NCBI GenBank assembly: GCA_018340805.1
Contig: JACMZG010001913.1
Span: 8,096,866 to 8,160,865 of the forward strand
Source of the DNA: Microvelia longipes
Taxonomy: Eukaryota; Arthropoda; Insecta; Hemiptera; Veliidae
Direction: 5' to 3'
Length of the DNA stretch: 64,000 bases
Shown: positions 3,972 through 54,100 of the stretch, in pieces
Numbering within the stretch: position 1 is the first letter of the stretch
How the letters are laid out: each line of letters begins with the position of its first letter
The notes under the pieces: model-generated
What the model saw: only the letters and a program-made list of their open reading frames with translations
Told to the model about the DNA's origin: nothing
The model's database searches: none
Program-made: the position numbers and the translations under genes

Positions 3972-4008
3972 CCTGGACCGGTTTCGGCATAACGCCATCA
4001 TCAGCAGG
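3972..4008 (-). ncRNA. Hammerhead-ribozyme-like motif A2 (minus)
   Basis: On the minus strand: CCTG, CTGATGA, T, GGC-GTTAT-GCC, GAAA, palindrome ACCGGT, C, CAGG. All four stem-I pairs (CCTG/CAGG), three stem-II pairs and all core residues are present. Stem III can pair only between two molecules or copies (ACCGGT is self-complementary). Confidence 0.7.
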
Positions 4009-4088
4009 CGGGGCAACACTCGAGCTCTCAACTAATAAAGTTATATTAGTGATTAACTTTATTAGTTGAGAGCTCGAGTGTTGCCTCG

Positions 4089-4125
4089 CCTGCTGATAAT
4101 GACGTTTTGCCGAAACCGGTCCAGG
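4089..4125 (+). ncRNA. Hammerhead-ribozyme-like motif A2 (plus), core mutated
   Basis: Same layout as its mirror copy, but the core reads CTGATAA instead of CTGATGA and stem II reads GAC..TGCC. Stem I and III are intact. Probably inactive. Confidence 0.55.
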
Positions 4126-4176
4126 GATATTCATATCCAACAGCAAGTATTGACGGTAGCTGATTCTTCGATTAAT

Positions 4177-4916
4177 ATTTGTAAACATGCAATCTTTTGA
4201 ACGGATTCATGTTTTCAAAGAAACTTGATACAAAAATCAATCTTGGGGTGGACTGTAACCCTTTATGAATAACTAGGTATTTATCACGCCATTAACCCAG
4301 TTTGCTGAGTAAAAAATGTTTAATAAATCTGTCAAATAAAGGATACAAATGTTCTGCCGGGGTAAAAATAAAGTATACGCATGTGGTTCTCAACCACACG
4401 TTTAATCATCTAGCAATTATGCCTCAGATGCTTTTTACTAACTCTCTATGGATGTAAAGACGCTGTACTCAGTCGAGCGCTAACGCCAGTGGCCGTACAA
4501 TCAAAGATAGACTCTTGGACCATTACTGGCTGGTCATTACGGTTACCTTACTCCTGTCAAGGTTCACTTGATAGCTCGTATATTGTCTCACTTCTATCTT
4601 TAACTACAGAGTTGACTGAAACTTCTATACGTGTTTGTCCACTTATTATCTTCATCTTATAAGTTCACTTATAAAATATTTTATTAAAAACTTAAGAGGT
4701 ATAAATGACTTAAAAGGCAATTTCGTATAAGCAAAAACGGAATTCAGGTACTAATTAATAGGTTATTTAGTAAAATAAAGGTTAATAATTTCGATTTCAA
4801 GACAATATGGTTTAGCACATTAGAGCAATAATTAAAATATAATACCCCTGTTACTATGCCTAAACTCTAAATATTAAAAAGCTAAGGCTTAAATAGTTTT
4901 TTGTTTTTTTTTTCAG
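4177..4916. other. Unassigned sequence before the receptor exon
   Basis: Nothing recognised apart from the polypyrimidine acceptor at its end; presumably intron. Confidence 0.5.
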
Positions 4917-5111
4917 GAGTAAAGTAGCGACAGCATTGCTCAACAAGCATTTACAAATCAACGGCATAGCAGCCGGTGTTGAAGTTGGTGCCGAGCAGCT
5001 TCAACCGCTTTCATCGGCTTCATCGAAGATGAAAAGAGAGAGAAAAGCGGCTAGAACGCTGGGCATCATCATGTCTGCTTTTATGGCTTGTTGGCTACCA
5101 TTCTTTTTATG
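4917..5111 (+). CDS. OctbetaR: Beta-adrenergic-like octopamine receptor, penultimate coding exon (third intracellular loop end and TM6)
   Basis: Seen: a polypyrimidine tract ending in CAG at 4914..4916, an open frame starting at 4918 (one base completes the previous codon), and a GTGAGT donor at 5112. The frame gives 64 codons plus two bases of a Trp codon. The protein begins in the third intracellular loop, continues through the basic segment [12 protein letters not shown] and enters TM6 with [12 protein letters not shown], which holds the CWxP switch. Known: this loop/TM6 signature is typical of arthropod beta-adrenergic-like octopamine receptors, Gs-coupled receptors that raise cAMP in response to octopamine at the plasma membrane. 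Phase: TG of the Trp codon joins G at 15534 to give FFLWYIITTLC. The exons for the N-terminus and TM1-5 were not found and probably lie upstream of this window. The subtype (beta-1 looks closest by recollection) is inference; another amine receptor is less likely. Confidence 0.88.
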
Positions 5112-5141
5112 GTGAGTAAATATCAATCAGTTTTTGACTTA

Positions 5142-5330
5142 TGACCAAGATCGTATGAATACTCGATTTTGGCACCAGAGGTCTGTGGTTTGCTGCACAG
5201 ACTATATTTTTATGTGAATTTAAGTTAGCATGAATATTTCGCCACATTTAATTCATACTTAGAGAATAGTGGATGTAACCCACTAGAGAGGACCCCTGTG
5301 GAAAGCCCTGTAGATTTAGGTTCGTGATTA
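5142..5330 (+). mobile_element. Degenerate SINE-like copy
   Basis: GGCACCAGAGGTCTGTGGTT, TATTTCGCCA and the later ATAGTGGATGTAACCCAC follow the same order as the better SINE at 20201..20423. The promoter boxes are eroded. Confidence 0.4.
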
Positions 5331-6330
5331 AATACCCTGTGGTAAGCATCCTAGAGGATTTGGGTTCGTGGGTCAAGTATGAAGATCGCAAAGAGGGTGT
5401 CCTGCCCAGTTAATATGTTGAATAATGGTATTTTATTTGTGTTCGGGTAAGCGTGTGAGTATGAGTCTACCCGTCTCTCTTCGATGTATAGTGTACAACA
5501 CCCGCAAGGGATCTTATATTTTACTAACATTGATGACGATTATCAGTCCGAGGTCGCAGAATTTCCACAAGATACTAATTATCTTATTAATATTGTCAAA
5601 TTCCATAAAACCGAGGTACTAGTGAATGTTTCTCGATATCGAGACAGACTCGTCTGGGAAGCTATAGAGATTACTAAGCACAGAAATAACATCAACAGAA
5701 AAATTGGGTTGAAGATCTCCAACACATGGAAATTTAGTGAATTCCACTATACAATCTAAGCCTACAATTACGTCACGCAATCATCAGCGACCAATTACTT
5801 CATTTAACAGAAACAATTCATTGGTGAGTACATTAACTGGACAGCACGGCCCTTAGACAGGTATAAATCGGCAACCCTTCATAGCACATCGTGTACCCAT
5901 CCATGATGCCCTAAATCCTTAAAGATGCCTCTCACAGTGGAAGCCAAACAATGGATCATCATCTGCAATGACCCGGTCAGCACTAGAATACCTAAATCTT
6001 CAATAAAAACATTAATTTCCGTTTAAAGCCTTGCGCCTTTTCAGGTCTAACATCTGCAGGAACCCCTTCATGTGGTAGTAGCAAATGCCTCGCGAAAAGT
6101 GTAATTTAAAGTTGGGGCTAATCCTAAATAAGCTGAAAGCGCAAATAAACCTCCGTGGATTCTAACTAATATTAACGCTCGAACGACCACGACTGAGAGT
6201 ACAACTATTATCAGTAGCCGTCAGAAGCCGTTTTGCCGGTACATCATCAGTCAGACTTAATAGAAAGTACGATGAAACTTAGATCATCTTAAAGGTCAAA
6301 ACAGGCATTTACTTTTCAAGTAAAAGGCAT
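5331..6330. other. Unassigned intron sequence
   Basis: Nothing recognised; two overlapping short open frames near 5425..5759 have no family features. Confidence 0.5.
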
Positions 6331-7072
6331 TTTTACTTTTCCTCATTTATACCGTAGGTAAAGTAATGCGAAAAAATTCGAAACCAGGATGTTTTGTTTC
6401 AAGTGTTTTTAAGGCCTTCTAAGTGGTTTTTACTAAGTTGTATGTCTGTATGTATGTGTGTCTGTGTCTGTTATCATCGTAGCTTCCAGTGTATTTGTGC
6501 TAGAGTTGAAACTTTGTACAAAAAAATTAGTCTACCGCTGTAGTTGTGCTGGTTTGAAAATATTTGTATGACGTTGTTAATCCGCAATAATGACTCGGCA
6601 AAAATTTCGAAAAATCATAATACGCGAAAAAAATGCTATCGGATTGAGATTTTTATCATATGACTTGTGTTCGTTTTTTAAAAAAATAGAAAAATTCAAT
6701 TGAATTTGAAAGTAAAATTCAAGTTTAGTAATGTATGTATGTATGTACATACATTACGTAAACATATACGTAATAAATAAGGACATCAAGTTTCGTTTTA
6801 ATACGACAAGTATATCCATGATTTTTGCTGGATCAAAAAATTTGACTCGTATCGAGCGTGTTCACTTTCTGCATGGGTGACTGCTGGGAATAAAACTGAA
6901 ATATTTACCATCTGATGATGAGCGAAGCGAGTCCGAAGACATTTTTCACAATAAATTTAAAGAGTTGTATATTCTGAGGACGAGCGAAGCGAGGTCGAAA
7001 TAGGGAGGAAAAAGGTAGCGAATCCAATGTGATGAGGAAAAGTACTGAGGTACCCCGTACCTGAATTTTTAC
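6331..7072 (+). mobile_element. Dispersed element with 5S-rRNA-like segment, plus copy
   Basis: Starts with TTCCTCATTTATACCGTAGG and ends at TACCCCGTACCTGAATTTTT. Includes GTCTGTGTCTGTTATCAT, CGCAATAATGACTCGGCAAA, a 5S-like stretch (6840..6895, GAGCGTGTTCACTTTCTGCA then TGGGTGACTGCTGGGAATA) and two GACGAGCGAAGCGAG blocks. No coding capacity seen. Confidence 0.75.
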
Positions 7073-7375: not shown

Positions 7376-7499
7376 TGGCTTTTTTTTAGGTTAGCTGCTA
7401 ATAATAATTAAGGATGTAATGGTAACGAGAAAGAGATCTCATCTCTATTTGTATTATTTCAATATATATACATATTTAATATCAATTTAAATGTATTAT

Positions 7500-8335: not shown

Positions 8336-8359
8336 ACCAAGTAATAATATATTCACTAC

Positions 8360-9130: not shown

Positions 9131-9139
9131 CTGTTTAAA

Positions 9140-9693: not shown

Positions 9694-11650
9694 ATATTAA
9701 AGAGAAATGTAAATATAGGAAAACTCTAAAAGAAGCAAAACTGAAGTACAATGGAATTATTATAGATTCGGCTGTAAATAATCAAAAATAGCTTGGGAAA
9801 TGGTTAATACGGAAGCAGGAAAATATAACAAAATAGAAACAAAAGGTAAAATTAATGTAAATATATTTAATGAATATTTTGTTGATGTATCTAAGAAGAA
9901 GGATATTAATCAGCAAGGAGCAAAGAATATCATCAGTGGTTGTAAGAATAAACCAAATTCTATTTTCTTCCTTTCCCCTGTTCCTGAAACAGAAATACTA
10001 GACATTATATTACAATTAAAGAGTTCAGGTACAAAAGATTATTATGGTTTGTCAAATAATTTAGTTAAATATATTGCCCTAATAGTAATTACTCCTTTGG
10101 CAAAACTATTAAATGAAGCTATAATGCATGGACACTTTCCGAGTGTGCTCAAATAGCAAAAGTAGTTCCAATATATAAAAAAGGAGACAAAGAATGTCCT
10201 TCAAGCTATAGGCCTATATCAATTACACCTATTTTCTCTAAAATCCTAGAGAAAATAATAAAAAAGCAATTAGTTAAATACTTAGAAGAGCATAATCTGT
10301 TAAGCAATAGTCAGTATGGCTACAGAACAGGAAGGTCAACTATCCAAGCTGTCTCTAGAGTGGTCAACAAAATAATCTATAGTATGGAGAAGGGCGAATA
10401 TTGCGAAATGACGTGTGTAGATGTCAGCAAGGCGTTTGATACTCTCCCTCATGAAATATTTTATTTTAAACTTAAATTTTTGGGGATCCAAGGAAATGCA
10501 GAGAGTATGTTAAAATCATATTATACAAAGAGACCACAGTGTGTGGAGTATGAGGGAGAGAGATCTGATATGAAATTGCTCGAATCTGGAGCCGGACAGG
10601 GTTCGGTGATCGGACCGTTTGCTTTTATTCTGGATGCGAATGACCTTGAAGGATACATGAATGTAGCTGGACCAGAGGATCCGATAGATCTTATAGACTT
10701 CCAGGAAGATCTAATCACCTTTGTCGACGATAATACCATTGTACACTCTCACAAGAATATAGTCGCACTTAAGAAAATTTCCAAGTTCAGAACCAAGAAA
10801 GTAGAACACTGGTTCAAAGAAAATCATTTTAAAATTAATGAAGAAAAGACCCAAAGATTAACTTTTACCACTAAAAATCACTCTTCATTAAATAATGAAC
10901 CAGTAAAGTTATTGGGACTCATACTGGATTCTAAACTATCATGGACTCCTCACGTTGAAGACTTGCATAGTAAAGTGTCAACTTATATTTTTGCATTAAG
11001 AAAATTAAAAAATTCATTACCTGAAGTATTTTGAGACAGGTGTATCTATCAATGATACAAAGCAGACTGGCATATGGCATAATATTGTGGGGTCATGTCA
11101 ACCTAAATTCTCTTCTTCTTCTGCAAAAGAAAGCCTTAAGAATTATTACCAAGTCAGGACACAGAGACAAGTGTAAACCTATCTTTAAAAAAACTGAAAT
11201 TATTAACAATTGTAAATTTATATGTATATACCGTGCTAATATTCATAAAGCAAAATGTAAATAGTTATAAAACTCAAGGAAGTAATCACAATTATAGCAC
11301 TAGACATAGAAGAGTACTTACCATTCCTGAGCACAGGTTAAGCAAGTCGAGAGTTGGTCAACAGATACTCGGCATTAAAATATTCAATAAATTGCCTCGC
11401 AGGATTGTTGCTCTTGAAATAAATGAGTACAAGAAAGAAATCAAAGAAATGTTATTAAAAGAGCCTTTTTATAGCTTAGAAGAATATTTTAATTTTAATA
11501 TAATTTGACCTGTAATTTTTAATCTTATTTGTATTTATGTGTTAAAATGTTTGTTTAGTTTTGTTATTTCACTCTTTTTTTGGACGCAACCTATTGTTAT
11601 CTTGGTAATTTAATGGAATAAAGAATTTATTTATTTATTTATTTATTTAT
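9694..11650 (+). mobile_element. 5'-truncated CR1/Jockey-like LINE inserted in the satellite
   Basis: Reverse transcriptase remnant in the sense of the host gene. Order: pre-RT segment (9694..9790), SYRPISITP and ILEKII (about 10200), QYGYRTGRST (10315), DVSKAFDTLPHEIF (10425), GAGQGSVIGPFAF (10590), catalytic FVDD (10720), LLGLILDSKLSW (10910), and the C-terminal SRLAYGIILWG (11060). Frameshifts near 10140, 11030 and 11260 and a stop near 9790 make it inactive. It ends with AATAAA (11617) and a (TTTA)n tail (11625..11650). The target repeat seems to show AGTAT on both sides, a possible 5-bp duplication. Confidence 0.9.
10142..11034 (+). pseudogene. LINE reverse transcriptase fragment, longest open part
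   Basis: About 297 codons without a stop, starting in the residues before VVPIYKKGD and covering fingers and palm. The catalytic box is FVDD where most relatives have F/YADD. Function in the intact element: RNA-dependent DNA synthesis for target-primed reverse transcription. The endonuclease domain is absent. Confidence 0.88.
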
Positions 11651-14900: not shown

Positions 14901-15533
14901 ATTTATATATTTTATTAAGTTAACAGTTTTGTTGACATGTCTTCCATAGAAAAAGAAAAACAAATTGGGTCATTTTAAGGGTTCAGAGACGTTAGTGAAA
15001 TATTTAAAACGACCGGAGAGGACAGAAAGGGGCGGCAAGCTGAGACCAGGACAACAATCCTGGAATTATTTATTATTATTTTTTTTGTTCCATTTCAAAA
15101 CTCTAATTTAATTTGTTTATGATTTAGGTGAGGGTTATTTTTATAGACATTTTATTCTTTCATTTTTATTTTATATGCATTGTTTTTGGGAAATTTGAAT
15201 TTAATAGGCATATATTCTTGTATTATTTTTAATAATATTTTATGTATAGCACTTATATAGGTATATTCTTACCTTTTATTTCTTCAGGTATTTGTTTTTA
15301 TTAATAATATAATGAATGCATTTATTTTTATTATAATAAAATATTTCAATATTAAAATGAAAAAAAAAAAACAATACATTAATCTTTTTAACTCTAATGA
15401 AAATAGGGATCAGTCTTCTTGGGGCAATTAGCAGAGATAGATGGTTGAATTATAATTTTAGGTGTATTTTCATGTAAAATTCATCACCTGTTTGACTGAA
15501 CTGAATTTTTAAATCAGAAATTTGATGTTTTAG
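14901..15533. other. Unassigned intron sequence up to the last receptor exon
   Basis: Nothing recognised. Confidence 0.5.
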
Positions 15534-15891
15534 GTATATTATAACAACGCTGTGTGGAGAAGAAGTGTGTTACTGTCCACAAGTAGTAGTAGCAAGTGTA
15601 TTTTGGATTGGTTATTTCAACTCAGCCCTCAACCCAATCATATACGCGTACTTCAACCGCGAGTTCAGATTTGCATTTAGGAAAACACTAGAGTCGTGTT
15701 TCACTTGCGGCACAAGTCCGGACTTCTACAGGACGCGACCAGCTCATCCCATCGCCTCATCCAACGTTTCATCGGCTGCTGAGATTCATTTTTTGAATAA
15801 CTCAGTTGTCAAGACGTCAACAGGTGATGATTTGTCAAAGCATTTATCTAGGAATCAATCACCTAATTTCTTCAGAGATGATGCCATCTGA
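15534..15891 (+). CDS. OctbetaR: Beta-adrenergic-like octopamine receptor, last coding exon (ECL3, TM7, helix 8, C-tail)
   Basis: Seen: acceptor TTTTAG before 15534 and a stop at 15889..15891; 118 residues follow the split Trp codon. Residues 1-14 are the third extracellular loop with several Cys (TTLCGEEVCYCP). TM7 reads VFWIGYFNSALNPIIYAYFN with the NPxxY motif. Helix 8 follows (NREFRFAFRKTL), then ESCFTC, whose cysteines are plausible palmitoylation sites. About 65 further residues form a Ser/Thr-rich cytoplasmic tail ending FFRDDAI. Known: FWIGYFNSxLNPxIYAYFN is diagnostic of the octopamine-beta group. The joined residue 3.5 kb... to 10.4 kb upstream is the 4917..5111 exon; the phase match across the 10.4-kb intron is the main proof of the link. 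A GTG-initiated reading inside this exon is a shadow, not a start. No frameshift is visible. Confidence 0.9.
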
Positions 15892-16942: not shown

Positions 16943-16983
16943 AGCTGAGCCGGCTTTCGGCAATAATGCCATCATCAGTGCCT
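16943..16983 (-). ncRNA. Hammerhead-ribozyme-like motif B (minus)
   Basis: Minus strand: GGCA, CTGATGA, T, GGC-ATTATT-GCC, GAAA, 8-base palindrome AGCCGGCT, C, AGCTG. Core intact; stem I has an A-A mismatch at its first position and then G-C, C-G, U-G. Confidence 0.55.
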
Positions 16984-17158
16984 AAAAACAAGTAAACAAA
17001 GGACAAATAACAATACATACAACCTAATAGAGCAATGAAAGTCAAAGGATAAAAAAAGGTATGTCGACGAAATTTTTATAATTTGGCGTGGATCCATGCA
17101 GCAGCTGCACTCTTTTCTTACATATCCCAATGAATGTTCCCAAGGCATCTAGTTTACC

Positions 17159-17461
17159 ATGGAAACAGAAAATAATAAAGAAGCTCTCAACTATCTCGAC
17201 CTCACTTTAACTAAGATCGAATTTTCGATCTATCGTTAGCCTACGTGTGCTGATACTGTTCTCCATGCTGAGTCCAGACACTCATGGTTGCAAAAATTAG
17301 GAGCGTTTCACAGCTGCACGTATCCCTTAGTCAATACGCCACTTAGTAATGAGAATTTTGAGAAGGAGAAGAGTATTATCTACCATATTGCCAAGAAGAA
17401 CGGTTACAATACTTCAATCGTGGATAAATTAGTTCAGAAAAAATTGGAGAAAAAGCCATGA
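17159..17461 (+). pseudogene. PLE reverse transcriptase, C-terminal fragment with one in-frame stop
   Basis: One frame of 100 codons, interrupted by TAG at 17237..17239. It reads ALNYLDLTLTKIEFSIYR, stop, PTCADTVLHAESRHSWLQKL, then FHSCTYPLVNTPLS and IIYHIAKKNGYNTS followed by VDKLVQKKL. In PLE proteins these correspond to the FLDL..I, YRKPT.TD, FxSLIxRL..PLS and I..IA..NGY motifs behind the catalytic palm. Upstream catalytic motifs are missing. The stop falls where the family usually has Lys. Not a functional gene. Confidence 0.82.
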
Positions 17462-17941
17462 AATATATTTACTCTGACGGCAAAGATTTGAACAAGACTA
17501 ATGAGCCTTGTTAGGGCTTAGAAGGGCCCACACATATTTTTACCCATGTAACTAACGAACGATATGGCACTTAAGGGCATTAAGTTGCATTTATGCATTT
17601 GAGGATAAGGGGTGTAGGTTAAATTCGCTTTAAAAATTTGGAGATTAAAATAGGTTTTGATAAGGACGCGGTGAATTGCCTGAAATATTAGTGTGACGGA
17701 GGGGATCAGTGATCATTAAAGAACTAGCTTATTATACCCTTCAGCCAGACTTCAGTCTTTGGATAGTCTGTTGATGCCTACACTCAAGTCACCGGTAATT
17801 TATTTATATATTTATTTATTCTATTATTTATTCTATTATTTATTTATTTTTTTCTGGTTTTTATCCCGTTTTTTCCTTTGACTTTTATTAATTCTATTGG
17901 GTTATATATATTGTTATTAGTTCTTTGTTTACTTCTTTTTA

Positions 17942-17983
17942 GGCACTGATGATGGCATTATTGCCGAAAGCCGGCTCAGCTTA
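17942..17983 (+). ncRNA. Hammerhead-ribozyme-like motif B (plus)
   Basis: CTGATGA 17946..17952, stem II GGC/GCC, GAAA 17966..17969, palindrome AGCCGGCT, C17977. Stem I: A-A mismatch, then five pairs (one G-U) between 17979..17983 and 17940..17944. Confidence 0.55.
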
Positions 17984-18939: not shown

Positions 18940-19052
18940 TATTTAAAGCTGAGTACTTGACTTGGTCAAGTACTCAGCTTTAAATCACTGGTTGACTTCT
19001 ATCCTCACTTTACCGGCACTGATGATGACCACATTTGAAACCCGGTTCTGTT
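18940..19052 (+). mobile_element. Short foldback with degenerate hammerhead-like motif C
   Basis: AAAGCTGAGTACTTGACTT faces its complement (palindrome at 18945..18985). It is followed by CTGATGA (19019..19025), GAAA (19037..19040) and near-palindrome ACCCGGT. Stem I can form TGTTG with CGGCA using wobbles, but stem II does not pair. Confidence 0.4.
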
Positions 19053-31500: not shown

Positions 31501-31660
31501 GATCTTAATATACAGATCTTAACCACAGATAAAATCCTTAATGATTTTAGCTGTGTGTACTACTATAATTATTAAAAAGTTTCTTTTTTGTGGACTTATA
31601 AAAATATATAAATAAAAACAGGTTAATTACACAAAAGTCCTTTATTGTTTAATATATAAT

Positions 31661-31697
31661 CACTAAGCTTCGACTAAAAATTAGTCATCATCAGAGT
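31661..31697 (-). ncRNA. Hammerhead-like motif D (minus), core damaged
   Basis: As the plus copy, but GAAA has lost one A (reads GAAGCTTAG). Probably inactive. Confidence 0.5.
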
Positions 31698-31831
31698 TTA
31701 AAAAATATAAAATAAAAATACAATTTTACAAACTACTTCATATTAGTAGTAACACTGATTTTTTTTAAATTCTTCAATGTAACAGTTTTTAACGGTTTTT
31801 TAAACATAGCTTACCAAACATATTTTTTTAA

Positions 31832-31868
31832 ACTCTGATGATGACTAATTTTTAGTCGAAAGCTTAGT
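31832..31868 (+). ncRNA. Hammerhead-ribozyme-like motif D (plus)
   Basis: ACT, CTGATGA (31835..31841), T, stem II GACTAA/TTAGTC with a TTT loop, GAAA (31858..31861), palindrome AGCT, T, AGT. Core intact. Stem II is six pairs, different in sequence from families A, B and F. Confidence 0.65.
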
Positions 31869-31979
31869 GATTATATATTAAACAATAAAGGACTTTTGTG
31901 TAATTAAACTGTTTTTTATTTACTATAATTATGTTTTTATGAGGGGCAATTTAAAAGTCTATTTTTTTCCTTACTAACA

Positions 31980-34502: not shown

Positions 34503-35850
34503 TTTAATATAAATAATAAATAAATAATAAATAAATAATAAATAATCCTTTATTTCACATAATATACATTTCTGTAAATTGTAAAAAGTCAAAACAAAAA
34601 AATTATTTGTTACAATTAAAATTTTATTGATTGAAATTCTTCCACACTGTACAAGGGATTTTTTAAAAGATTAATTTTTACTAATTTGTCAAAACTATTC
34701 TCTTCAAGGGCTCTTATATTTTCAGGTAATAAGTTATACAGCTTTAGCCCTGCTTGAATTGAATTATATTTAGCTGTTCTTGTCAGTCTGTATTTGTTAA
34801 GTACTATATGATTTTGTCTGCCTTGTATAGTGAGAATGAAGTTCTCAACTTTAGTTAGACTTGATCTAATACTAAATGTAATTAAAAGCTGATAGCAGTA
34901 TAAAGAAAAAAAGTAAGGATTTCATGAGTTTGAAAAAATTTTTTACAAGATGTTTTGTTGGGTAGATTTAAGATAACCCGTAGTGCTTTTTTTTGTAGAA
35001 TGAATAGTCTGCTCGCATGAGGAGAAGCTCCCCAAATCATTGTGCCGTAAGACATTAAACTAAAAAAATGAGCAAAATAAACTATTTTAAGAGAATTTTG
35101 GGAGAGGGAGCTTGAAACTTTCTTGAGCATATAAATGCTTGTACTTAATCTTTTAGCTAATAGTCAATATGAGGTTCCCATGATAATTTTGTTGTCAATA
35201 TAGATGCCTAAAAATTTAAATGAGTTTACGCTGTTGTCCATAAAATTAAATCTAATATTTACAGTTTTATTATTATTAAGTTTTACCTTATTGGCTTTAC
35301 ACCAGTCATTTAAAATATTAAGTGCTATTGACTGTAGCTCAAGCAAGTCGGATTGAGTTTTGGACGAAAAAATTACCCCATAATCATCAGCGAAAAGAAA
35401 AGCTCCAGCTACTAATAAACGCATGACGTAGGGCAAGTCGTTAATATATATAAGAAATAGTATAGGACCTAATATAGATCCTTGTCTAACACCATGTATT
35501 ATGCTTTGTAAGGCTGAACAGGAGCCACCTATGTCTATGTATTGTTGCCACCCTTGTAAATATGATATCAAGAAATTTATTAATGTCTCGTCTAATCCGT
35601 AGTAAGCTAATTTCACCCTTAATATCTCAATCTGCACTCCATCAAATGCTTTGGAAAAGTCAAAAAATAAGCTGAAACTATTTGTTGAAGATCATAATTT
35701 TCCATACATATGTTTATAAACCTAGTGACAGCTTGTGTAGTGTTCCTTCCCTTTCTATAGCCGTACTGATGTTCGTAAAGAAGTTGATTTGTTTCAAAGT
35801 ACTCTACAATTTTTATAAGAATTTTCTATACTATTTATAGTTAAGGGGTT
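34503..35850 (-). mobile_element. 5'-truncated CR1/Jockey-like LINE, minus strand
   Basis: On the minus strand: GYRKGRNTTQAVT (about 35740), a frame with LAYYGLDETLINFLISYLQ, HGVRQGSILGPILFLIYIND, catalytic FADD (about 35385), KANKVKLNNNKT, FKFLGIYIDNK (about 35190), then SYGTMIWGASPHASRLFILQ KKALR (about 35010). The C-terminal region ends near 34620, followed by AATAAA (34549..34554 in plus coordinates) and a TTTA/TTATT-type tail. Breaks near 35150 and 35660 and the missing 5' half show it is dead. Related to, but not the same family as, the 9.7-kb LINE. Confidence 0.88.
35164..35637 (-). pseudogene. LINE reverse transcriptase fragment with FADD
   Basis: 157 codons covering palm motifs B to D: GVRQGSILGPILF, FADDYG, and LNNNKTVNIRF, then FLGIYID. 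In the intact element it copies RNA into DNA. The open frame ends abruptly before the thumb. Confidence 0.9.
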
Positions 35851-36330: not shown

Positions 36331-36333
36331 ATT

Positions 36334-36782
36334 AAGGCGCGGTCGAATATCTAGTACGTTGGATCACCAACAAACTTTTTTTATAATTTTTTTTTCAAAA
36401 TTTTCAGTAATTAGCCGAATTTGTGATAAATGAAGCCTATTTTCGTAATCTGCACGCTCTTTTGGTTAATCTCAAAGAGTATTTACATTCACTTAACGAT
36501 TTATTTTTAATCTAACTTGGTACATACATAACTACTGTTAGACGTCAATGTTAACAAACACAAAATATTGACGTCTAACAGTAGTTATGTATGTACCAAG
36601 TTAGATTAAAAATAAATCGTTAAGTGAATGTAAATACTCTTTGAGATTAACCAAAAGAGCGTGCAGATTACGGAAATAGGCTTCATTTATCACAAATCCG
36701 GCTAATTACTGAAAATTTTGAAAAAAATATTATAAAAAAAGTTTGTTGGTGATCCAACGTTCTAGATATTCGACCGCGCCTT
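36334..36782. mobile_element. 0.45-kb foldback MITE (short form of the 60.4-62.9-kb palindrome)
   Basis: Arms of about 210 bases from AAGGCGCGGTCGAATATCTA inward to TAACAGTAGTTATG; loop GTTAACAAACACAAAAT near 36550. TA on both outer sides suits a TA-targeting (Tc1/mariner-type) transposon. The arms match 60384..60616 and 62662..62881. Confidence 0.9.
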
Positions 36783-37610
36783 ATACAAAAACAGTCAGAT
36801 ACTGTCATGTATGTTTAGGATTTTTTTGTAAAATATGTCCCACGGAAGAAATGCCTCCAAAAAGAGAAAGAAATGTATGGACGTACGAAGACACCGGTCT
36901 CTCAACAGTGTTGACCTCAGGGTTTGCCTAATACCTACGAACAGTGCTGAACTGAGCCATAAAAAAGCCCGAGGGGAGTTCGGCCTGAAAGAGTCCAAAC
37001 CTACATCTCAAGGAGCCCATTGAGAGGGCGGGAGTTCCTATATTGCATCTTAGAGGGGTCTACTTTTTACTAGAGTAATATTAATGATTATGGCAAGCTT
37101 AATTTTATTTATTTAACTTTAATGTCATACTTAATAAAATTAAATCAAATATTATTTTATTTAAATAAATTAAAATAAACTTAAGTAAATACTTAAAGTA
37201 AATAAAATAAATAGGTAAGAATAAAATAAACTTAAGTAAAACTTAAGTTTATTCATTTAAATAAAAATTTTAACTAAACTATTTTATGTTTAATCTTAAG
37301 GGCCCTTTCGTACTGCTCTAGGGCCCTGATCAAGTATGTTAAGGGCCTCTTGAGGCCTTAGTCTTCCGTTTGGGACTTAGTCTCCGTTAAGGGCCAAATA
37401 TAAAGACTGGGGGCCCTAAAGGACCTTAATTTAAGTAACGAATTGAGAATATTTTTAAATACATTTGTCTCTAGGAGCTTTTTAGGCCCTAACTTAGAGT
37501 ATTGGGCTACTGTGTCTCTGGTATTATGAATATATCAAAAATTAATTATGATGATAATTTTTTTTTATTATTTGTTGTTTTTAAGTTTATTTTTGGCTGA
37601 GGAAGGTTGA
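36783..37610. other. Unassigned; GGGCCC-rich patch at 37290..37500
   Basis: TAAGGGCC and GGGCCCT recur about seven times in 200 bases. No gene supported. Confidence 0.5.
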
Positions 37611-38109: not shown

Positions 38110-38450
38110 TAAATGAGGGTTGCCGCCCTCGCCCCCAATGGCTAGTTCGCCCCTACCAACACATACTCCCTCCACGAGACTTCTACCCTCCGCGAGACTT
38201 CTAAATCCATACTGGAACCGATATTCAAACTACTTTAGGATAAATATTATCTTGAGCCACTGGGCTACCCCGTCTTACCTCCCTCTGATCTATTATGTCA
38301 CGGTATTCAAAACACTATTAACCACACCACTAACATCGCCTTTCCACCAATAAGCTATAATCACTCTAAGCCGAGCACGGCTTTCGCCTATAATGCCATC
38401 TACAGTGCTGGTGACATAATGAGTTTTAACAAATTTTCAAAGAAATATTC
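38110..38450 (-). mobile_element. Remnant with degenerate hammerhead-like motif G
   Basis: Motif on the minus strand (38365..38412): AGCA CTGTAGA T GGC-ATTATA-GGC GAAA GCCGTGCTC. It resembles family B but has a damaged core, unpaired stem II and an insertion in the stem-III palindrome. Confidence 0.4.
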
Positions 38451-42429: not shown

Positions 42430-43420
42430 ATATTTTTTCTCATTTATACCGTAAGTAAAAACACCAGTACACGGCATCCTTAAGGAGAGTTTTTTGTTCT
42501 TTTAGCTCTTCTTACTCAGCTTGTGATGAGCTATTAGCTATTAGCTATTAAGTTCAAAAAAATATTTTTGCTATCAGTACTAAACAGGTTTTAAAGTAGT
42601 GTGATTGTTTTTTATTCAAACATAACTATATTCTTTAAAAAAAATGGTAAATTACAAACATATGTCTACCCAGTAACTGGCACCCCTTTCTCCAATACCG
42701 GGCATGGGTTTGGACCCAGTACCCTGCATCTCTCCACTCTTCTAAAAGAGTATCTCCACTTAATTATTTTATTAAAAACAAAACCGGCATTCACCCATAT
42801 TTTATCTAGCAAACGAAGGGATATATCATTTTATTTGATGTATTCTTCTAATGTAAGATACTGATGCAACGCATTACTAGTTTAAGTATATTTAAAGCTT
42901 AATTTATAGTACATTGCCTAGGTAACGAAAGTGAATTATGAAACAATCAATTGCCTATGAATAATTTGATGTTTAGAAGCTGTCGCACTTAATAATTTTT
43001 ATTACAAATTATTTTTGTAAGAATTATTATCAATACTTCAATGTTTTATTATAATAAGTTATTGTTGATTTTGCTCCTTTTCTTTCTTTTGTTTTGTTTT
43101 TATACTCTTTAAGTCCATCTTTCAGGTTATTCTCTCTATTATATTTTCAAGTGCAAGGATACTCTCGAATCCTCTCTCAATAGAAAACAATGGAATCGAG
43201 GAAAAACAATAGAGAATTGAAAATAAACGAACGACGTCTCGAGATTAGATGGGAAAACTTCGTGTGGGCCAAAAATAAAATAATAAAAGACAAAAATTAA
43301 TTAAAGATATTCGTTAACTATAACTATTTTTAATATTGTATTTTACATATTTATTTTTTTGTATAGTATATTATTAATTCTTATACATACTACTATAAAG
43401 TTAATATTTTTAAAATTAAA
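42430..43420. other. Mostly unassigned
   Basis: TCTCATTTATACCGTAAGTA at 42437 is a short end fragment of the dispersed element. No gene supported. Confidence 0.5.
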
Positions 43421-43495
43421 AGGTTGTATTTACCGCAAGTTGAAGAAGCAATCGAAGAATCAGCTACGTCGATACTTGCTGTTGGATATAAATAT

Positions 43496-43530
43496 CCTGG
43501 ACCGGTTCGGCATAACGCCATCATAGCAGG
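43496..43530 (-). ncRNA. Hammerhead-like motif A3 (minus), damaged
   Basis: On the minus strand the core reads CTATGATGG, with bases missing from CTGATGATGG, and GAAA is shortened to GAA. Stem I and the ACCGGT palindrome remain. Confidence 0.5.
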
Positions 43531-44016
43531 CGGGGCAACACTCGAGTCTCAACTAATAAAGTTAAATCAGTGATTAACTTCTAGTCTCAATGAGCACGAC
43601 GACCCTCTGAAGATAAGGGAGGAAGTAGGACCTAAACTGACGTACTTGAAAGACTAGAAAATATACAAACACAGAATTACTGACAAGACAATTATTAACG
43701 AACAACTTACTTTCAATTCGGACATTACTTTTTTCGGTACTCAAACCAACACTTGACAAAAAACGAAAACGGGAAAAACCATGACACCGGTACACATCAT
43801 AATAAAAAGACACAAAGCATCATAACGCCAGATGGCTCACCCGCACACCTGACTCACACACCTGACTACTCAGGTCACGACCTTGACTCAGTACACATTC
43901 CCTTTATAAAACCCTTTCTACTTCCTCCTTATCTTCAGAGGGCTCGTCGTGCTCATTGAGACTAGAAGTTAATCACTGATTTAACTTTATTAGTTGAGAG
44001 CTCGAGTTTTGCCCCG

Positions 44017-44053
44017 CCTGCTGATGATGGCGTTATGCCGAAACCGGTCCAGG
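44017..44053 (+). ncRNA. Hammerhead-ribozyme-like motif A3 (plus), intact
   Basis: CCTG (44017..44020), CTGATGA (44021..44027), T, GGC-GTTAT-GCC, GAAA (44040..44043), palindrome ACCGGT (44043..44048), C44049, CAGG (44050..44053). Identical to the best A2 motif. Confidence 0.7.
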
Positions 44054-44124
44054 GATATTTATATCCAACAGCAAGTATCGACGGTAGCTGATTCTTCGAT
44101 TAATATTTTTGTATGACATTATTT

Positions 44125-44808: not shown

Positions 44809-45068
44809 ATTCGATTATCATTTTCATCAAATAAACAGAACAAAAAAAGCAGTAAATTATATAGTAGATGTTTAAAATACAAATTACAACACAAACAATT
44901 GCGGGAAGCCGAAAAAATTGATTAATTATAACCTTAACTCCTCTTGGAGGAGGTTTCAATGAGGTTCACAGAGCCCCTGAGAGCCCACTAAAAAATGTTT
45001 CAGGCCTCTCAATGTATTAAGATAGGCTACTATGCCCTCTAGTATATATCTCTATGAGGCATAGCTCT
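44809..45068. mobile_element. Partial copy of the same family, interrupted by a LINE
   Basis: GGAGGTTTCAATGAGGTTCA CAGAGCCCCTGAGAGCCC, CTCTCAATGTATTAAGATAG and CTCTAGTATATATCTCTATG. The partner half starts at 46974 beyond the LINE (GAGCATAGAGATATTATTAC TAGAGG). Confidence 0.65.
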
Positions 45069-46945
45069 TTTAAATGCTGTCAAAAAAATATTTTCTTCTA
45101 TTTTATTGAATAGAATATGTAATTGGGCTGATGCAAACAACATTATTCCTGAGGAACAATCTGGGTTTCGAGTAGGTCGCGGCTGTATCGATAACATATT
45201 TGTATTGAATGCTGTAACTTCATTGAACTTGATTAATAGAGTGGCCTATCTAATAATTATATTTATTGATTTCTCCCGAGCCTTCGACTCGGTTTTTCAC
45301 CATCTACTTTGGGGAAAAATTGCTTAAACTTGGGTTAAGTTCTAAAATTATAAAAATACTTAAATCAATTTATGATCAAGCTGCTTTTACATCAAAGATA
45401 AAAATAGTTTTTCAGAAAAAATAGAAATTACTCGTGGGCTTTTACAAGGCGAGCCGTTATCTGCCACCCTTTTTAGCTTATTTATTTCTGATCTCGTTAC
45501 ATTTTTTAAGGCCAGAGGCTTTACGGGAGTCAAGCTTAGTAACGCAATACGAATTTTAATTTTACTTTATGCTGATGCACTTTTCTTATCAAGCTGCTGG
45601 TCCGAAGCACAAGAACTATTAGATACTCTATTATTGTACTGCTTGGAAAATGGTCTTGAGGTTAACACGTTGAAATCCAAAGCCATTATCTTCTCACGTT
45701 CAACAAAACCAAAAAAACTCAGCCTCTAATGTACAACGGTAACCAAGTTGAATATGTAAAAAATTATACTTACCTAGGTGTTCCATTTGCATCCTCTGGC
45801 AAGTTTCTTCAAGCCAGCAAGTACTTTATATCCAAGGGTAATATTGCCTCAGCCCAAGTCCGAAGAAACTTATTAATTCCAAGTCAGATTCATGGCAACT
45901 AAACTCACTCTCTTTAACTCTCTTGCACTATCAACCCTATTGTATAGCTCCGAAGTCTGGGCCCCTAGATACTTAGACGAACTTGATACTTTCCAATCTA
46001 AGTTTTTTAAACATCTACTTTATCTTCCTTCCTGTACTCCGCATTACATGTTACGCTTAGAACTTGGCCTCTTATCTCTTAAATCCAAAATTTTTAAAGC
46101 TATGGCTAATCTTTGGCTTAAATGATTATATATGGACTCAAACCGTCTCCCTCGCAAGTGTTTGATGGCTTTATTAGAAGTGGATGGTAACAAAAATATT
46201 TAGAGGATTTGAACTGGGTCTTTCAATTTAAATCTTCTTATCAACTATTGGCAGATCTGATCTGATAAATACTGATGTAGACCAATTTAAATCAAGCTTA
46301 AAAGACTTGTGTTTAGCTTTGATAACCATCTCTTTTCTTTAGATATAGAAAAAGCCATCAACTCAGGTTACTCACCCTCATTTCGACATATCTCGTTATT
46401 CTGTTCAAAGGTGAACCATACTTACAGAGCAGGTGTGCATCAATATATAAGATTTGCTACTCAGATCCGTCTTGCAAACTCTAATGTAACAAACTGTACT
46501 TACATAACAACGCATTAGTTCTCAATAACTCTGAGACATGCCCGCTCTGTAACATTGGTTCAGACAATCTAGAACATTTCTTCCTACATTGTGCTAGCAC
46601 GAGAGATCTTCGCCTGAAATTCATGGACATTACTCTGATTCAAAACTTGCAGACTTGTTTGTAAGAAATCGATATTAACATACTGCAGAAATTGCACTTG
46701 TTTTTTGTAGAATCCTTAAAAATAAGACAGGATCAACGAAATTAGCTTATTTTGTTTTTATATTATTATAATTTTTCTTTTTAAATTAATTTACACTGCT
46801 CGTGAACATAACGACGCAGAAAGAAGTAAGTTTTCTTTTGTTTTATAATTATAAGAAAACTTTTTTTTATTTTTTTTTTATTTAGCTATAAGACTTATTT
46901 TTGTAGAAAACTTTTATGTTTTATGCAAATAAAGATATTATATAT
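45069..46945 (+). mobile_element. Non-LTR retrotransposon (LINE), decayed, 5'-truncated
   Basis: Order: IIPEEQSGFRVGRGCIDNIF (45145), DFSRAFDSVFHHLLWGK (45270), GLLQGEPLSATLFSLFISDL (45430), catalytic-box remnant YADA (45570), GLEVNTLKSKAIIF (45655), YLGVPFASSGKF (45770), SLALSTLLYSSEVWAPRYL (45910), LRLELGLLSLKSKIF (46055) and a C-terminal CPLCNIGSDNLEHFFLHC zinc-knuckle-like motif (46535). Stops or frameshifts occur near 45325, 45420, 45725, 45900, 46125 and 46515. AATAAA at 46927 precedes the end. A different LINE clade from the other two in this window. Confidence 0.88.
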
Positions 46946-48151: not shown

Positions 48152-51100
48152 GTATGCTTGTTTTTAGGTTTAGTGTACAGTGAAATAGAATCAACGAGTG
48201 ATTACTCCCGTATTTCGGGCTGTCAATTTTGGCCGCTAGTGCTTTTCAGCTACTATTGTAGAGAAGGTTATGCCAATGCCATGTTGCCTGTCATTGATGA
48301 AGGTTGTATGTCAGAAATTCGTACAAAATGAAGTGATGTAAATATTAGGTCGGCAGTAGAGACAGTTAGTACGTTCACACACACTGTAGATCCTCGGATC
48401 GTATAGAATACGATCTCTCAATACGGTAATTTGCGGAGGGGATCCGATCGCATACGCTAGAACTAGGGAGATGGAATCTAAATGGATCCCCCGATACACT
48501 GTATGTACCTTTAGAGACGATCATATTTAACGGATAACCTTCTCGTCGAACTTTTATTTCACTTCTATATTACTGTTTTTGATCAAATAACTTTTGGAAT
48601 ATTATTTTTTTAGTGTAACTGTATTATTATGCAAAGAAATCACAATTTAATTTAATATATTTTTGGTTTTAAACTTCCTTATAACCAAAAGTGAAGCTTC
48701 ACTATACAAGACGCCATATATTGGCAGGATCAGTTATCATGTAATCTCACTCGATCCACTAAACAAATATACGCTGTAAGAACCGTGAAGTTAGGTGACC
48801 ATATGCAATATGATCGCCTGTGAAATACGCTGTGTGTACGTTGTAAATCAAAGGGGGAAACTAGTTTAACTTCAATGAGGCAAGTCAGCGCTAGTTTTTC
48901 CTTAATCAGTTTTTCATAAATCCTTCTGTTGATTTATATCCGTTGCTAAGCAAGGATCTTGAATAAAGGGGATGACGCATTTAGGAACATTTCTGACCCC
49001 ATGACAGTTGTTTGACATAGAGAAATAGGAGCAAACTTACCTTCCCCATAGTTATAATGAAAAAAGGTGCCAAACGCAGGTTATTTAGCAAGGTTGTCGA
49101 GTTTGCTTCTCAACTTTTTTCTGTGCTTCTCGTGATTATTACATTTTTGGTGCTTGTTAAGACATTTGTGCTTACTTAATTTTAAATTTTAGACTATATT
49201 TAGTTCTTAAGAGAGACTATACTTAGTCACTTTAGTGAGCGATAATTTAAGCGTGTTTTGTTATGACCTTCTCAAGTAATGAACAATGGGAAACCATTGA
49301 GCGGTAAGTTTGCCTCTAAAATTTAAGACTTGCGCTGTTATAAGAATTGTAAGCATGCGCAGTTGGTTTTTGACGTGTGTTTCGTGTTGAATTCTCTCTA
49401 CATTTTGGTTTATCAATTGGGTCACTTTATTGTATGGCAAATCAACTTAGTGCATCATCCCCTTTATTCCAGATCCTTGTTACTAAGCAACAGTTTACAA
49501 AGAGCGTCATTTTTGACATATAAACTAAATTTAATAAAGCCGGTTGAACAGGTTGTTATAGTTTGTGATTTTGACAATTTTTTAAAAAATGCTGTAAGGA
49601 TAACTAGCGCTGCAATACAGATATTCAGAGGAACTAAAAGTGACAGAATTTGCTCAGGGCCGTGTGAAGGGTGGGAGTCGGAACACTGTCTCCACGCTGA
49701 ACCCTCATTTTCATACCACTCAGGACCTAAAACACCTAATCAGGCCTCAAATCACCTAAACGGATAATTCAGGTGATATCCCAGTTCTGGATTTTTTTGC
49801 AAATGCAATACTATTCCAATATACTTACGGTATAAATGAGGAAAAATAAAATCTACTCTAGGCACACAGTCTTTAAATTTCACTATGGCATATACCAAAT
49901 TTAGTTTTATCCTGCTGAAAAATTTAACCTTAGCTTGAGAAATAAAATTAAAACTTGGTCTCATATAAATAAGGCATTGTAACTTCATAAAGGTCTTTTG
50001 GTTTATTATGAAGTAAAAGAAAAATAAAATAAAGAAATTAAAGATCTAAGGTCAACTTAAAAAGTAAACAATTATTATAGGTAGAAATTTTTGATTTTGT
50101 TTTACTGGGCTTTATTCATGATCCTTGAATGGTAGACATCTTAATCTTAAAGAGTGGTGGCCATTGCATTGACCCCTTGCCTATAAGATAAACTTTGTTT
50201 GGTTGCAGGCACTGCAAGAAGCTTTTGCCCGAGGAGACTTAAAACCTGGATTAAACATACTTGAAAAAGAAAAGAAGAAATATGCTAATAATGTTGTAAG
50301 TATCTAGGGTCAGGAATATTTTTCAGAAATGTTTTCAGGGATACGCAAACTTTGGAGCCTCGCAAAGGCAAACTTAAGACCTTTGCAGAGGCAAACTTTA
50401 GAGTCTTGCTGAGGCCATTTTTAAAGCCAAACAGAAATAAAATTTAAAGTCTTGATGAGGCAAACTTAAGAGTTTTGGTGTGGTAAACTTTAAAGCCTTG
50501 CAGAGGCAAACTTTAGAGTCTTGCTGAGGCAAACTTTAGAGCCTAACAGAAATAAAATTTAAAGTCTTGCTGAGGCAAACTTAGGAATTTTGGTGAGGAA
50601 AACTTTAAAGCCTTTGCGAGGCAAACCCCAGAGCCTTGCACAGCCTCATTTGGGTTAGGCCGTACTTAGCAGACTCTCTATTTCTCTCTTAAAACTTAGA
50701 GGAAGGATACAACAGTTCTTATCATTCCTTGGCTAGCTAGGTGCCGTAACTGTACATTGGTGATGTAATTTTTCATAATAATTACAATTCAATATAAATA
50801 TTAGATTATTTTTCCACTAATTTAAGAATTTAAAATAAGTTAAAAGAATTATTTATCACATAAAGTCTTTAATTATCTGTGTTGTATAAAGTGATTTAAT
50901 ATGACGTCTCGTTTGTTGAGTGGGTGATACGATAAGAGTTGTAGAGGGGTGGGGAGTATCTAGTCTCTCTCTAGGGAGACTCTAGTAGGAGTAAGTCCTG
51001 TTATAGCACCTAGTAGAAGCTGTCTCACTTCCAGACCCCTTATCACTGTGTGATATTCTGCTGATGTACACCCTCCAGGTATTAGTCTCTTTGATTTCTC

Positions 51101-54100
51101 TGCTTTCTGCTTTCACCTGGATAGTTTTAAAACTTAAACTCATAATTGACTTTCTTTATCTTTATCAGTTTAAGAAGCATCTTAAGAACTTGCAAGATGA
51201 GAAAGCTTAAGCATTTTATGAGGTTCTTATGGCGTTGAGGTCATAGGAGGGGGGAGGAGGTTTCCATAAAAAGGGTGGACATACTGATTAACAACACAAA
51301 TAATATAATTTATATTTTAACACAACATTCACTAACTTAAGCTGACAAGATTAGTAGAATGATCGTGAATGGAGTCCATAATAAATAAAGAAAGAAAAGA
51401 AGTCTCTCCACAAAACAAAACTTTATTTGCAAAGCGCTTTCAGCCTAACTAAAGGCCATCACCAGTGCAAAACCATTTAGATGTTAAAAGATGTTAAAGA
51501 AGAGAAGTGAGTCTATTTTTTCCTACTAGATATTAGAATCAGACTCTAATACTCGTCTGATTCTAATACCTAGTAAGAAAACATAGACTCACTTCTCTTT
51601 TTTTAACATCTCAACAGTTTTGCACTGACGATGGCCTCTTAGGCTAAAAGCGCTTAGCCAATAAAGTTTTGTTTTGTGGAGAATCTTCTTTTCTTTCATT
51701 ATTCAGTGGACAAGACGGATAATACCAACTAGAAAATAAAGAATAGTCTCTCCACAAAAACAATAGTTTATGGGCAAAGCGCTTTCAACCTAACATGAGG
51801 TCATCATCAGTGCCATGAAGATAAAGATGAATGTTATAAATACATAAAACTATTTTCTTTTCCGAGATGGTAACAGCTCGGTGAGTCGAGTAAGACACAA
51901 CTTGTAGTGACCAAAACTCGAGTATGTAGTACATATCTTAACTCATTTGCGTCATTTTTGGAGATACCCCAATGTGACAGATTTATACTACCGTCCGAGG
52001 TGGTTCCCATAGGGGTTATACCTTGAGCCAAAAGACTAAATGGGCATCATAGATTTCAATGATGCACTGAAATATAATGACTGAGTATAGTTTACTTTAA
52101 GATGGACCCCTTTCATTTTTTAATATTAATAACAATAATGCCCGTTTTAGGACCTTTTGACCTGCGAGAACAACCTTGGGTGAGTCACATCTACTATGCT
52201 CAAAGTAAAGCTAAAGTTGGCGGAATCTTTTATCTTTTTACAACAAATTCTATTCATAAAAAACTGAGAGCATAGCCCAGGCTGAGAATCCACCTCTGGT
52301 GCCACGGAGGCAGATTTTTTAATATTTATTATTTAATAATAAAAAAATTTCAAACATTAGATGTACTGAAATAGTTTGTGTATTTTTTTCAAGGGAAAAA
52401 TGAAGAAGAGGTTAGAAGAAATAACTTTAGATTTGCCATGGATCGAGAAGTTAGATGTTATTTGTAAACCAGCTTCTATTGCTCCTGAATTAGCAAAGCA
52501 GGTAACTTAACACTGTTCAATTTGGTTTATATACTTTCTATGAAAACAAGTCTTCTTTATTTAATCAACTAACCCCTTTCCCTCTGAGAAGGGGGGATGA
52601 TGTAATTAGGAAGATGTGATAGATTATTGAGCAAATTATAGTTGGTTTTTAGTTCTACAAATTAAATACTAACACATGATAGAGTGTAACTAACAATTAT
52701 AATCAGTTGACAGTGTGGGGAAATAGTGTGAGGGAGCCAATGAGGTTAGTCCTGGTTGTTAAACCATGCCCACAATAAACCTCATTGGTTTCTCAACATT
52801 TTCCCACACTGTCAATTGATTATAACCATGTGCTATACTTTATTATATATATTTCACCTATGTCTGTATTTTTCATGTTTGTGCGGTATGTTATAGTCCA
52901 AGAGCCAGGCTTAAAAAATGTGACTTATTTTTTACTATGTCTAATCAAGTTTTTCTGAAAATATACCTTAAATTATAAAGGAAAAGCATTGTCTGCCTAT
53001 CCAGAGTGGAGCCCTTCATGTGAGTGAGCTCGCACAAAATATTAGAACATCGCTCAAATTTCAGTTTTCTTGCAATAAGTTGTTCCTTGTATGTCGTGTG
53101 CAAAACATAAAGAGAACATTTTTTAAAGCTGATTCAATTTTCTATAAAATGAGTGTTTTTTGTCCAAATTGGATAACTACAACTGAAGTTGTTGTTGTTT
53201 GTTTAATGTCCAGAAAAATGCACAAAAAGCCAATATTTTTTCAAAGAAATTTGCTAACTTTGCATAAATAAATAATTTTTTAGTATTTTAAAAGAGCCAT
53301 AATTTTGGTTGTAGTCATCCAATTTTGATGATTAAACACTCGTTTTAAAGAAAATTTTATCAGCTTAAAAAATGTTTTCTTTATGTTTTACACACAACCC
53401 ACAGGGAACCACTTATTTCAGGAAAACTGAAATTAGTGCGATTTTATAAAATTTTGAGCATGCACAATAATATGATGAGCTTCACTCTGGATAGGCAGGC
53501 TAGGTTTTTTCTTCATAATTTAAGGTATATTTTTAGAAAAAAATTGGTTTGAAATAGTTTAACATTTTTTCAGGTGTGGCTGTGGGACTATTAGGTCAGA
53601 CATTTAGTTAGGTATGCTATTTCAGTGAGCAACTAAAGTATGAACTGCATTCGGAGACGTCCAAAGTCGTAGTCTAAACCAGAGATACACAAACTTTAGT
53701 GCCCTGCGCTAATGGTACTTGGCGTACCCCTATCTTTTTGTTTATACCACATCCCTCGCCCTTCTGTTTATATCCTTATATATTAAGGCTTGCGAAGCCA
53801 GTCTATCATTTGCAACACGAAAGAGCTTAAAAATGATGGTACATTTTGTTAGTTTGATTTAATGAACCTTAATCAGATTCAACAGTTTATAATAGAAAAC
53901 TATTATATTTATTGTCAACTGTAAACAGTTGACAATAAATTCATTTAAATTTTATAGTTCCCTGTTCAATCTCAATCACTTGAACAAAAATCAATTTCTT
54001 TTAGAACCTTCATTTCTGATTCCATAAAATGTGCATGGAAAACACCGTAAATTGTATTTCCAATGAGTAGAATCTCTGTTATTAATATTTGGACACTCAT

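What the first reader, a model, noticed from the sequence alone, without database searches (positions are those of the whole stretch)
3972..51814. A dozen hammerhead-ribozyme-like motifs in at least five families within one 64-kb window
Seen: CTGATGA + T + short stem II + GAAA + palindromic stem III + (C/T) + stem I at 713, 3972(-), 4089, 16943(-), 17942, 31661(-), 31832, 43496(-), 44017, 51426(-), 51622, 51773(-), with degenerate relatives at 19019 and 38365(-). Stem I is CCTG/CAGG in A, ACT/AGT in D, TTTGCA/TGCAAA in E, GGCA/TGCC in F. Stem II is GGC/GCC, GACTAA/TTAGTC, GGCCT/AGGCT, GACCT/AGGTT. Stem III is ACCGGT, AGCCGGCT, AGCT or AGCGCT, always self-complementary. Compensating changes across families argue for selection on RNA structure. 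Known: type-I hammerheads with minimal stem III that work as dimers occur in Penelope-like elements and metazoan retrozymes. Inference: active or recently active self-cleaving RNAs.
Basis: partly seen in the sequence, partly recalled or inferred. Interest (0 to 1): 0.88.

Follow-up and report, generated by a model that had tools for sequence, protein, structure and literature searches.

The report
Penelope retrotransposon scars carrying hammerhead motifs
This stretch of (probably animal) DNA carries several short, mostly decayed copies of a known kind of jumping element (Penelope-like), whose ends contain a small self-cutting RNA motif; the motif's one odd extra base also turns up in a number of viral sequences.

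Summary
The motifs are real: 14 copies at the stated places. A strict hammerhead descriptor finds 4 in the window, against 5 in 3709 shuffled windows. They are not a dozen independent ribozymes: 10 of 14 form five head-to-head inverted pairs. Three family A insertions and the family E one have target-site duplications (11, 7, 11, 12 bp; 82-100% A+T; the 7-bp one weak). In three of these four, tailed ends lie 110-116 nt after the ATG inside the motif; untailed ends of all four lie at 70-80 nt. A published Penelope-like element (PAc, Anolis) starts reverse transcription 111-118 nt into its ORF, which begins at stem II of its hammerhead (PMC11167929). So A and E are pLTR-only footprints of Penelope-like elements, a known kind; D and F probably. 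Only 4 of 14 copies are intact. Rfam finds none, but it also fails to report most complete phage hammerheads tested. The inserted U is the unexpected part: in viral contigs 73 of 251 U-insert matches have a complete three-stem fold, against 1 of 71 with A or C inserted. I saw no description of it in the papers I could search.

The parts
508..804 (+). A element 1 (body 519-793) with 11-bp target-site duplication CAATTAACTTT at 508-518 and 794-804; left arm lacks the hammerhead (deletion)
   Evidence: (0.2% of 2000 random draws share as long a word)
714..750 (+). hammerhead copy A1; stem I has one G.A mismatch
3880..4185 (.). A element 2 (body 3887-4178), inverted arms 3924-4043 / 4054-4173 (114 of 120 identical), possible 7-bp duplication TTGTAAA (weak: 12.75% of random draws)
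3972..4008 (-). hammerhead copy A2, intact by strict descriptor
4089..4125 (+). hammerhead copy A3; core G8 changed to A
43401..44110 (.). A element 3 (body 43412-44099), arms 43452-43628 / 43918-44099 (175 of 176 aligned bases identical, 7 gap bases), duplication TTAATATTTTT at 43401-43411 and 44100-44110
   Evidence: (0.1% of random draws)
43496..43530 (-). hammerhead copy A4, core deletions
44017..44053 (+). hammerhead copy A5, intact by strict descriptor
31561..31932 (.). E element (body 31573-31920), arms 31611-31709 / 31821-31920 (97 of 98 aligned bases identical, 3 gap bases), 12-bp duplication TACTATAATTAT
   Evidence: (0 of 2000 random draws)
31662..31697 (-). hammerhead copy E1, one A of GAAA missing
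31832..31868 (+). hammerhead copy E2, intact by strict descriptor
16943..17981 (.). D pair: arms 16943-17054 / 17869-17981 (102 of 112 identical) around about 0.8 kb; no target-site duplication found
16943..16983 (-). hammerhead copy D1, A.A mismatch at the first stem I pair
17941..17982 (+). hammerhead copy D2, same mismatch
51384..51703 (.). F pair: arms 51384-51544 / 51555-51703 (134 of 149 aligned bases identical, 12 gap bases) meeting near a palindrome; no tail seen, duplication inconclusive
51426..51471 (-). hammerhead copy F1 (CTGGTGA core, one substitution)
51621..51659 (+). hammerhead copy F2, G12 lost
51773..51814 (-). hammerhead copy F3, intact by strict descriptor; single, not paired
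19015..19052 (+). degenerate copy G
   Evidence: one search gives 15.6 bits, E 0.2, in the range of chance hits
38365..38409 (-). degenerate copy H, core indel
   Evidence: one search gives 13.6 bits, E 0.6, in the range of chance hits

Best explanation
The motifs are the minimal type I hammerheads of Penelope-like elements (PLEs), left behind by short insertions that copied only the terminal pLTR region of PLE RNAs. Shown here: inverted arms (five pairs) and, for families A and E, a one-sided tail, AT-rich duplications and ends at two fixed distances from the hammerhead. Inferred: a PLE protein encoded elsewhere cut AT-rich DNA on both strands and started reverse transcription internally on the RNA, about 110-116 nt after the hammerhead ATG on one strand and about 70-80 nt on the other. 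It copied back through the hammerhead, and the two truncated cDNAs were joined head to head, in some cases at a palindrome. The hammerhead's role is inferred to be in RNA processing or folding near the start site, probably with protein help. The inserted U creates the element's ATG in family A, but it stays in families with no reading frame, so it is also tolerated or used at RNA level.
For: Chance unlikely. Covariation of stems. Inverted arms 89.9-99.4% identical over aligned bases in five pairs. Duplications of 11, 11 and 12 bp, matched by 0.2%, 0.1% and 0% of 2000 random draws. Tailed ends at +112, +110, +116 and untailed ends at +70, +80, +73, +80 from the ATG (the tailed arm of A element 1 has no ATG to measure from). 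The Anolis PLE PAc has internal RT starts at 111-118 nt in an AC-rich stem loop, an optional 30-40 bp tail, both strands cut and extended, AT-rich targets, and its ORF starting at stem II of its hammerhead (PMC11167929 main text). In family A the tail ends in an AC-rich stretch (GGTAAATACAACC or GGTACCAACAACC) before T runs. Rotifer Penelope elements have inverted pLTRs, a 31-bp tail, duplications of 8-10 bp, a pLTR that includes the first 12 codons, palindromic junctions and pLTR insertions around unrelated DNA (PMC3846280 passages). Families A and E, with no similarity seen by eye outside the motif, obey the same spacing.
Against: No PLE reverse transcriptase or GIY-YIG domain was seen, but only 30 of 104 ORFs of 65 aa or more were scanned. 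Pairs D and F show no convincing duplication or tail, so their assignment rests on motif and inversion. A element 2's duplication is weak (12.75% of random draws reach it). Element ends were set by eye before the duplication search, so those fractions are somewhat optimistic. The arm carrying A4 has small deletions, so its +110 is approximate. The organism is unknown and its genome could not be searched.
Confidence: 0.85

Rival explanations
1. Foldback or MITE-like DNA transposons whose terminal inverted repeats happen to hold a hammerhead-like motif; moved by a transposase.
For: Long, nearly perfect inverted arms and target-site duplications; no internal genes noticed; pairs D and F show no tail.
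Against: In A and E the ends are asymmetric (tail on one side only), duplication length varies (7, 11, 11, 12), and the outer ends of families A and E lie at the same two distances from the motif. No convincing transposase domain in the 30 of 104 ORFs scanned (one sub-threshold transposase-associated match, E 0.084, at 46291-46515).
Confidence: 0.08
2. Metazoan retrozymes: small direct tandem repeats with type I hammerheads, transcribed and circularised.
For: Short non-coding units with type I hammerheads, as described for coral, mussel and axolotl (PMC7229834 passages).
Against: The copies are inverted pairs or singles, none in direct tandem (positions and strands); in families A, D, E and F stem III is a bare palindrome without a loop; [quoted passage not shown]
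Confidence: 0.04
3. Chance resemblance plus one repeated family inflating the count.
For: Rfam finds no hammerhead even at E 10, in the whole window or in two short stretches; copies within a family are not independent; my covariance model recovers F only weakly.
Against: Three families (A, E, F) pass a strict descriptor at an expected 0.0013 hits per window.
Confidence: 0.02

Closest known systems
Poseidon element PAc of Anolis carolinensis (PMC11167929)
   Same: Hammerhead at the pLTR-ORF junction with the start codon at stem II, internal reverse-transcription start 111-118 nt into the ORF, 30-40 bp tail, AT-rich targets, both strands cut and extended.
   Different: Here no ORF for a PLE reverse transcriptase was seen (30 of 104 ORFs scanned); insertions hold only the pLTR region; the frame after the ATG closes after 3-22 residues in families D, E and F.
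Penelope families Pen2/Pen3 of Adineta vaga (PMC3846280)
   Same: Inverted pLTRs head to head, 31-bp optional tail, 8-10 bp duplications, pLTR includes the first codons, palindromic junctions, some pLTR-framed insertions without the ORF.
   Different: The word hammerhead does not occur in that paper's text; the elements in the passages I saw mostly carry the ORF.
Minimal type I hammerheads of animal genomes (PMC7229834, PMC7761336)
   Same: Thousands of dispersed minimal motifs lacking the unpaired part of helix III; some map to PLE pLTRs (passages).
   Different: Here 10 of 14 dispersed copies resolve into inverted insertion footprints, with defined ends for families A and E.

Membership tests
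Penelope-like element | telomerase-like reverse transcriptase with GIY-YIG endonuclease in one ORF | tested here: inconclusive
   Not seen among 30 of 104 ORFs scanned; the four RVT_1 matches there look to me like LINE reverse transcriptases (own reading). Expected to be absent from pLTR-only insertions.
Penelope-like element | pLTRs, including inverted head-to-head arrangement | tested here: met
   Five inverted pairs
Penelope-like element | optional 30-40 bp tail on one pLTR, ends at internal RT start sites | tested here: met
   A elements 2 and 3 and E: +110 to +116 against +73 to +80, a difference of 32-37 nt; 37-40 nt of the left arm unmatched in the arm alignment. Not seen in F and D
Penelope-like element | short variable target-site duplications in AT-rich DNA | tested here: met
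   11, 7 (weak), 11, 12 bp, 82-100% A+T, in A and E; not found for D and F
Hammerhead ribozyme, type I | conserved core CUGANGA ... GAAA, three stems, H at the cleavage site | tested here: met
   4 of 14 copies intact, each with one inserted U
Hammerhead ribozyme, type I | covariance-model match (Rfam) | tested here: not met
   but U-insert phage hammerheads are not reported in 8 of 8 loci tested, and canonical ones not in 5 of 7
Hammerhead ribozyme, type I | self-cleavage | not testable with these tools
   needs transcription in vitro
[quoted passage not shown]
   Positions and strands of the 14 copies show inverted pairs and singles, no direct tandem

The most novel reading that the evidence does not exclude
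A hammerhead with one extra U between A9 and stem II is a separate, structurally maintained variant shared by Penelope-like elements of animals and by many phages. Rfam's models overlook it, and it works without the U serving as a start codon. In PLEs it sits at a fixed distance from the reverse-transcription start, acting as a folding landmark for the PLE protein rather than mainly as a self-cleaver.
Probability: 0.35. Interest if true: 0.65.

Novelty: new member of a known kind. Interest (0 to 1): 0.42.

Why it matters
A 2020 review (PMC7761336, passages) says that most minimal type I hammerheads of animals are dispersed in non-coding DNA, and that their activity and role in PLEs and Terminons are still a mystery. 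Here 10 of 14 dispersed copies resolve into inverted insertion scars. In families A and E the two ends of a scar match the internal reverse-transcription starts measured for a PLE protein in vitro. That is in-genome support for two-strand, internally started insertion. The U-insert variant, found complete in 60 distinct forms in viral contigs and not reported by Rfam in the loci tested, means hammerhead surveys that rely on those models may undercount.

Tried and rejected
Rfam at gathering and at E 10 on the whole window, and at E 10 on two short stretches: no hammerhead; judged uninformative. Own covariance model R1 from 8 copies of A, D and E (stem II pairs only): with default filters it listed none of the three F copies at E 10; with filters off on 1.2 kb they rank first to third, but at only 5.5-7.4 bits, E 0.099-0.27. 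R1 gives 20-25 bits to matches without a hammerhead fold in bacterial contigs L011-L015, as much as to complete phage copies (23-27 bits), and places G and H among chance hits; it is driven by core sequence and is weak evidence. A second alignment was misaligned in stem II by MAFFT and not used. Target-site duplications for D and F: none convincing; for G only a 6-base match (no control run). Homologues of the LINE reverse transcriptase at 10117-11031 (best 39% identical) gave no clear host. GTDB genome scan for the U-insert motif: 5 matches, none with a complete fold. A blastn of one phage U-insert copy against GenBank phages matched only 23 bases of one record.

Considered and rejected: that the inserted T is only the ATG start codon. 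It persists in families whose frame closes after a few residues (MTNF, MAS, MAFS, MTSC) and in phages.
Full report
Observation. All 14 motif sites exist on the stated strands. A strict descriptor, written after seeing the finding, gives 4 hits in the window and 5 with one core mismatch; 3709 shuffled windows give 5 and 143 in total. Every window hit needs one inserted base after CTGANGA; that base is T in 13 of 13 tabulated copies (A4 not tabulated). Among five motif types the true strand pairing is the only one of 120 permutations to reach its total (stem I alone 2 of 120, stem II alone 12 of 120; F2, G and H left out; F1 and F3 are related, so not fully independent). Four of 14 copies are intact. 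The rest carry damage, including loss of G8 (4093+) or G12 (51625+), the residues described as general acid and base (PMC6155905 passages).

Setting. The window is AT-rich and probably animal DNA: pieces resembling rhodopsin-type receptor exons (4897-5112, 15526-15888; both below Pfam's own cut-off) and reverse transcriptases that look LINE-type to me. ARAGORN finds no tRNA. The organism could not be named, and the search of its genome did not complete (eight calls).

Anatomy. Ten of the 14 copies form five inverted pairs. Arms are 95.0% (A element 2), 99.4% (A element 3), 99.0% (E), 89.9% (F) and 91.1% (D) identical over aligned bases. A element 1 lacks the hammerhead in its left arm. F3, G and H are single. 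Flanking duplications: CAATTAACTTT, TTGTAAA, TTAATATTTTT and TACTATAATTAT; equal or longer shared words occur in 0.2%, 12.75%, 0.1% and 0% of 2000 random draws. In A and E the left arm runs further than the right. Measured from the ATG inside the motif, left ends lie at +112 (A2), +110 (A4) and +116 (E1), right ends at +70 (A1), +80 (A3), +73 (A5) and +80 (E2). D and F show no clear duplication or tail.

Identity. For the Anolis PLE PAc, reverse transcription starts internally 111-118 nt into the ORF, the optional 30-40 bp tail is the stretch between two start sites, both DNA strands are cut and extended, AT-rich sites are preferred, and the ORF starts at stem II of the hammerhead (PMC11167929, main text read). 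That paper saw no difference in start site between the two strands, so one-sided tails here are not directly predicted by it. Rotifer Penelope elements show inverted pLTRs, a 31-bp tail optionally on one of the inverted pLTRs, 8-10 bp duplications, palindromic junctions and pLTR-framed inserts without the ORF (PMC3846280, passages). The window's A and E elements match these features. Family A also opens a frame from that ATG (MALCRNRSRDIYIQQQVSTVADSS...). So these are pLTR-only PLE insertions. Head-to-head arms ending at two start sites are what two-strand extension from one RNA region would leave; this last step is inference. The rotifer paper proposes self-priming on an antisense template instead for such inverted structures.

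The hammerhead itself. PAc's hammerhead cleaved only when protein was added, and cleavage was not needed for insertion in vitro. The same may hold here; activity was not tested.

The inserted U. Rfam does not report the window motifs. The same U-insert core occurs in viral contigs with complete stems. One criterion (stem III of at least 3 pairs with loop, H, stem I of at least 4 pairs) was applied to all matches in the 489 loci held: canonical 85 of 144 complete (81 distinct), U-insert 73 of 251 (60 distinct), A-insert 1 of 49, C-insert 0 of 22; U-insert cores with shuffled flanks 26 of 5020. Stem I pair types vary widely among the complete copies, but these were selected for pairing, so the shuffled control is the evidence. 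Eight loci hold both canonical and U-insert copies. At E 1 Rfam reports no U-insert copy in 8 of 8 loci tested (L001, L002, L003, L021, L062, L069, L083, L187) and a canonical copy only in L001 and L003, at 23.7 bits against a cut-off of 48.5. I saw no mention of an insert at this place in passages of PMC3088659. One search found no paper; searches (20 of 32 listed; 18 of 19 listed) showed no title or abstract start that I could recognise as describing it. The primary PLE hammerhead paper (Cervera and De la Pena 2014) is not held, and its figures may well show it. PAc's published start codon position suggests the same U there.

Verdict. Real, well-explained, known kind; mostly decayed copies. 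The U-insert variant and the fixed spacing to the two cDNA starts are the parts worth following.

Noticed in passing
L001:10000, L002:78(-), L021:11802(-), L042:8758(-), L062:1434, L083:7897(-) and others: Complete type I hammerheads with one inserted U after CUGAUGA recur in IMG/VR viral contigs (73 of 251 matches, 60 distinct); eight loci hold a canonical copy as well; Rfam reports none of the U-insert copies in the eight loci tested.
   Followed up: partly
window 60448-62830: Inverted repeat with arms of 897 nt, 99% complementary, 589 nt apart, with a second 89-nt inverted pair inside; no hammerhead copy lies there.
   Followed up: no
window 36333-36783: Foldback of 220-nt arms (98%) with 11 nt between, sharing sequence with 60436-60619 and 62659-62834: another short repeat family.
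   Followed up: no
window 10117-11031, 35167-35691(-), 45058-45726: Pieces of reverse transcriptases (RVT_1), LINE-type by my own reading.
   Followed up: partly
window 43903-43911: TTTATAAAA box upstream of the A5 arm, a possible pLTR promoter (seen by eye).
   Followed up: no
window 942: A canonical CTGATGA ... GAAA string that the descriptor does not accept, apparently chance.
   Followed up: no
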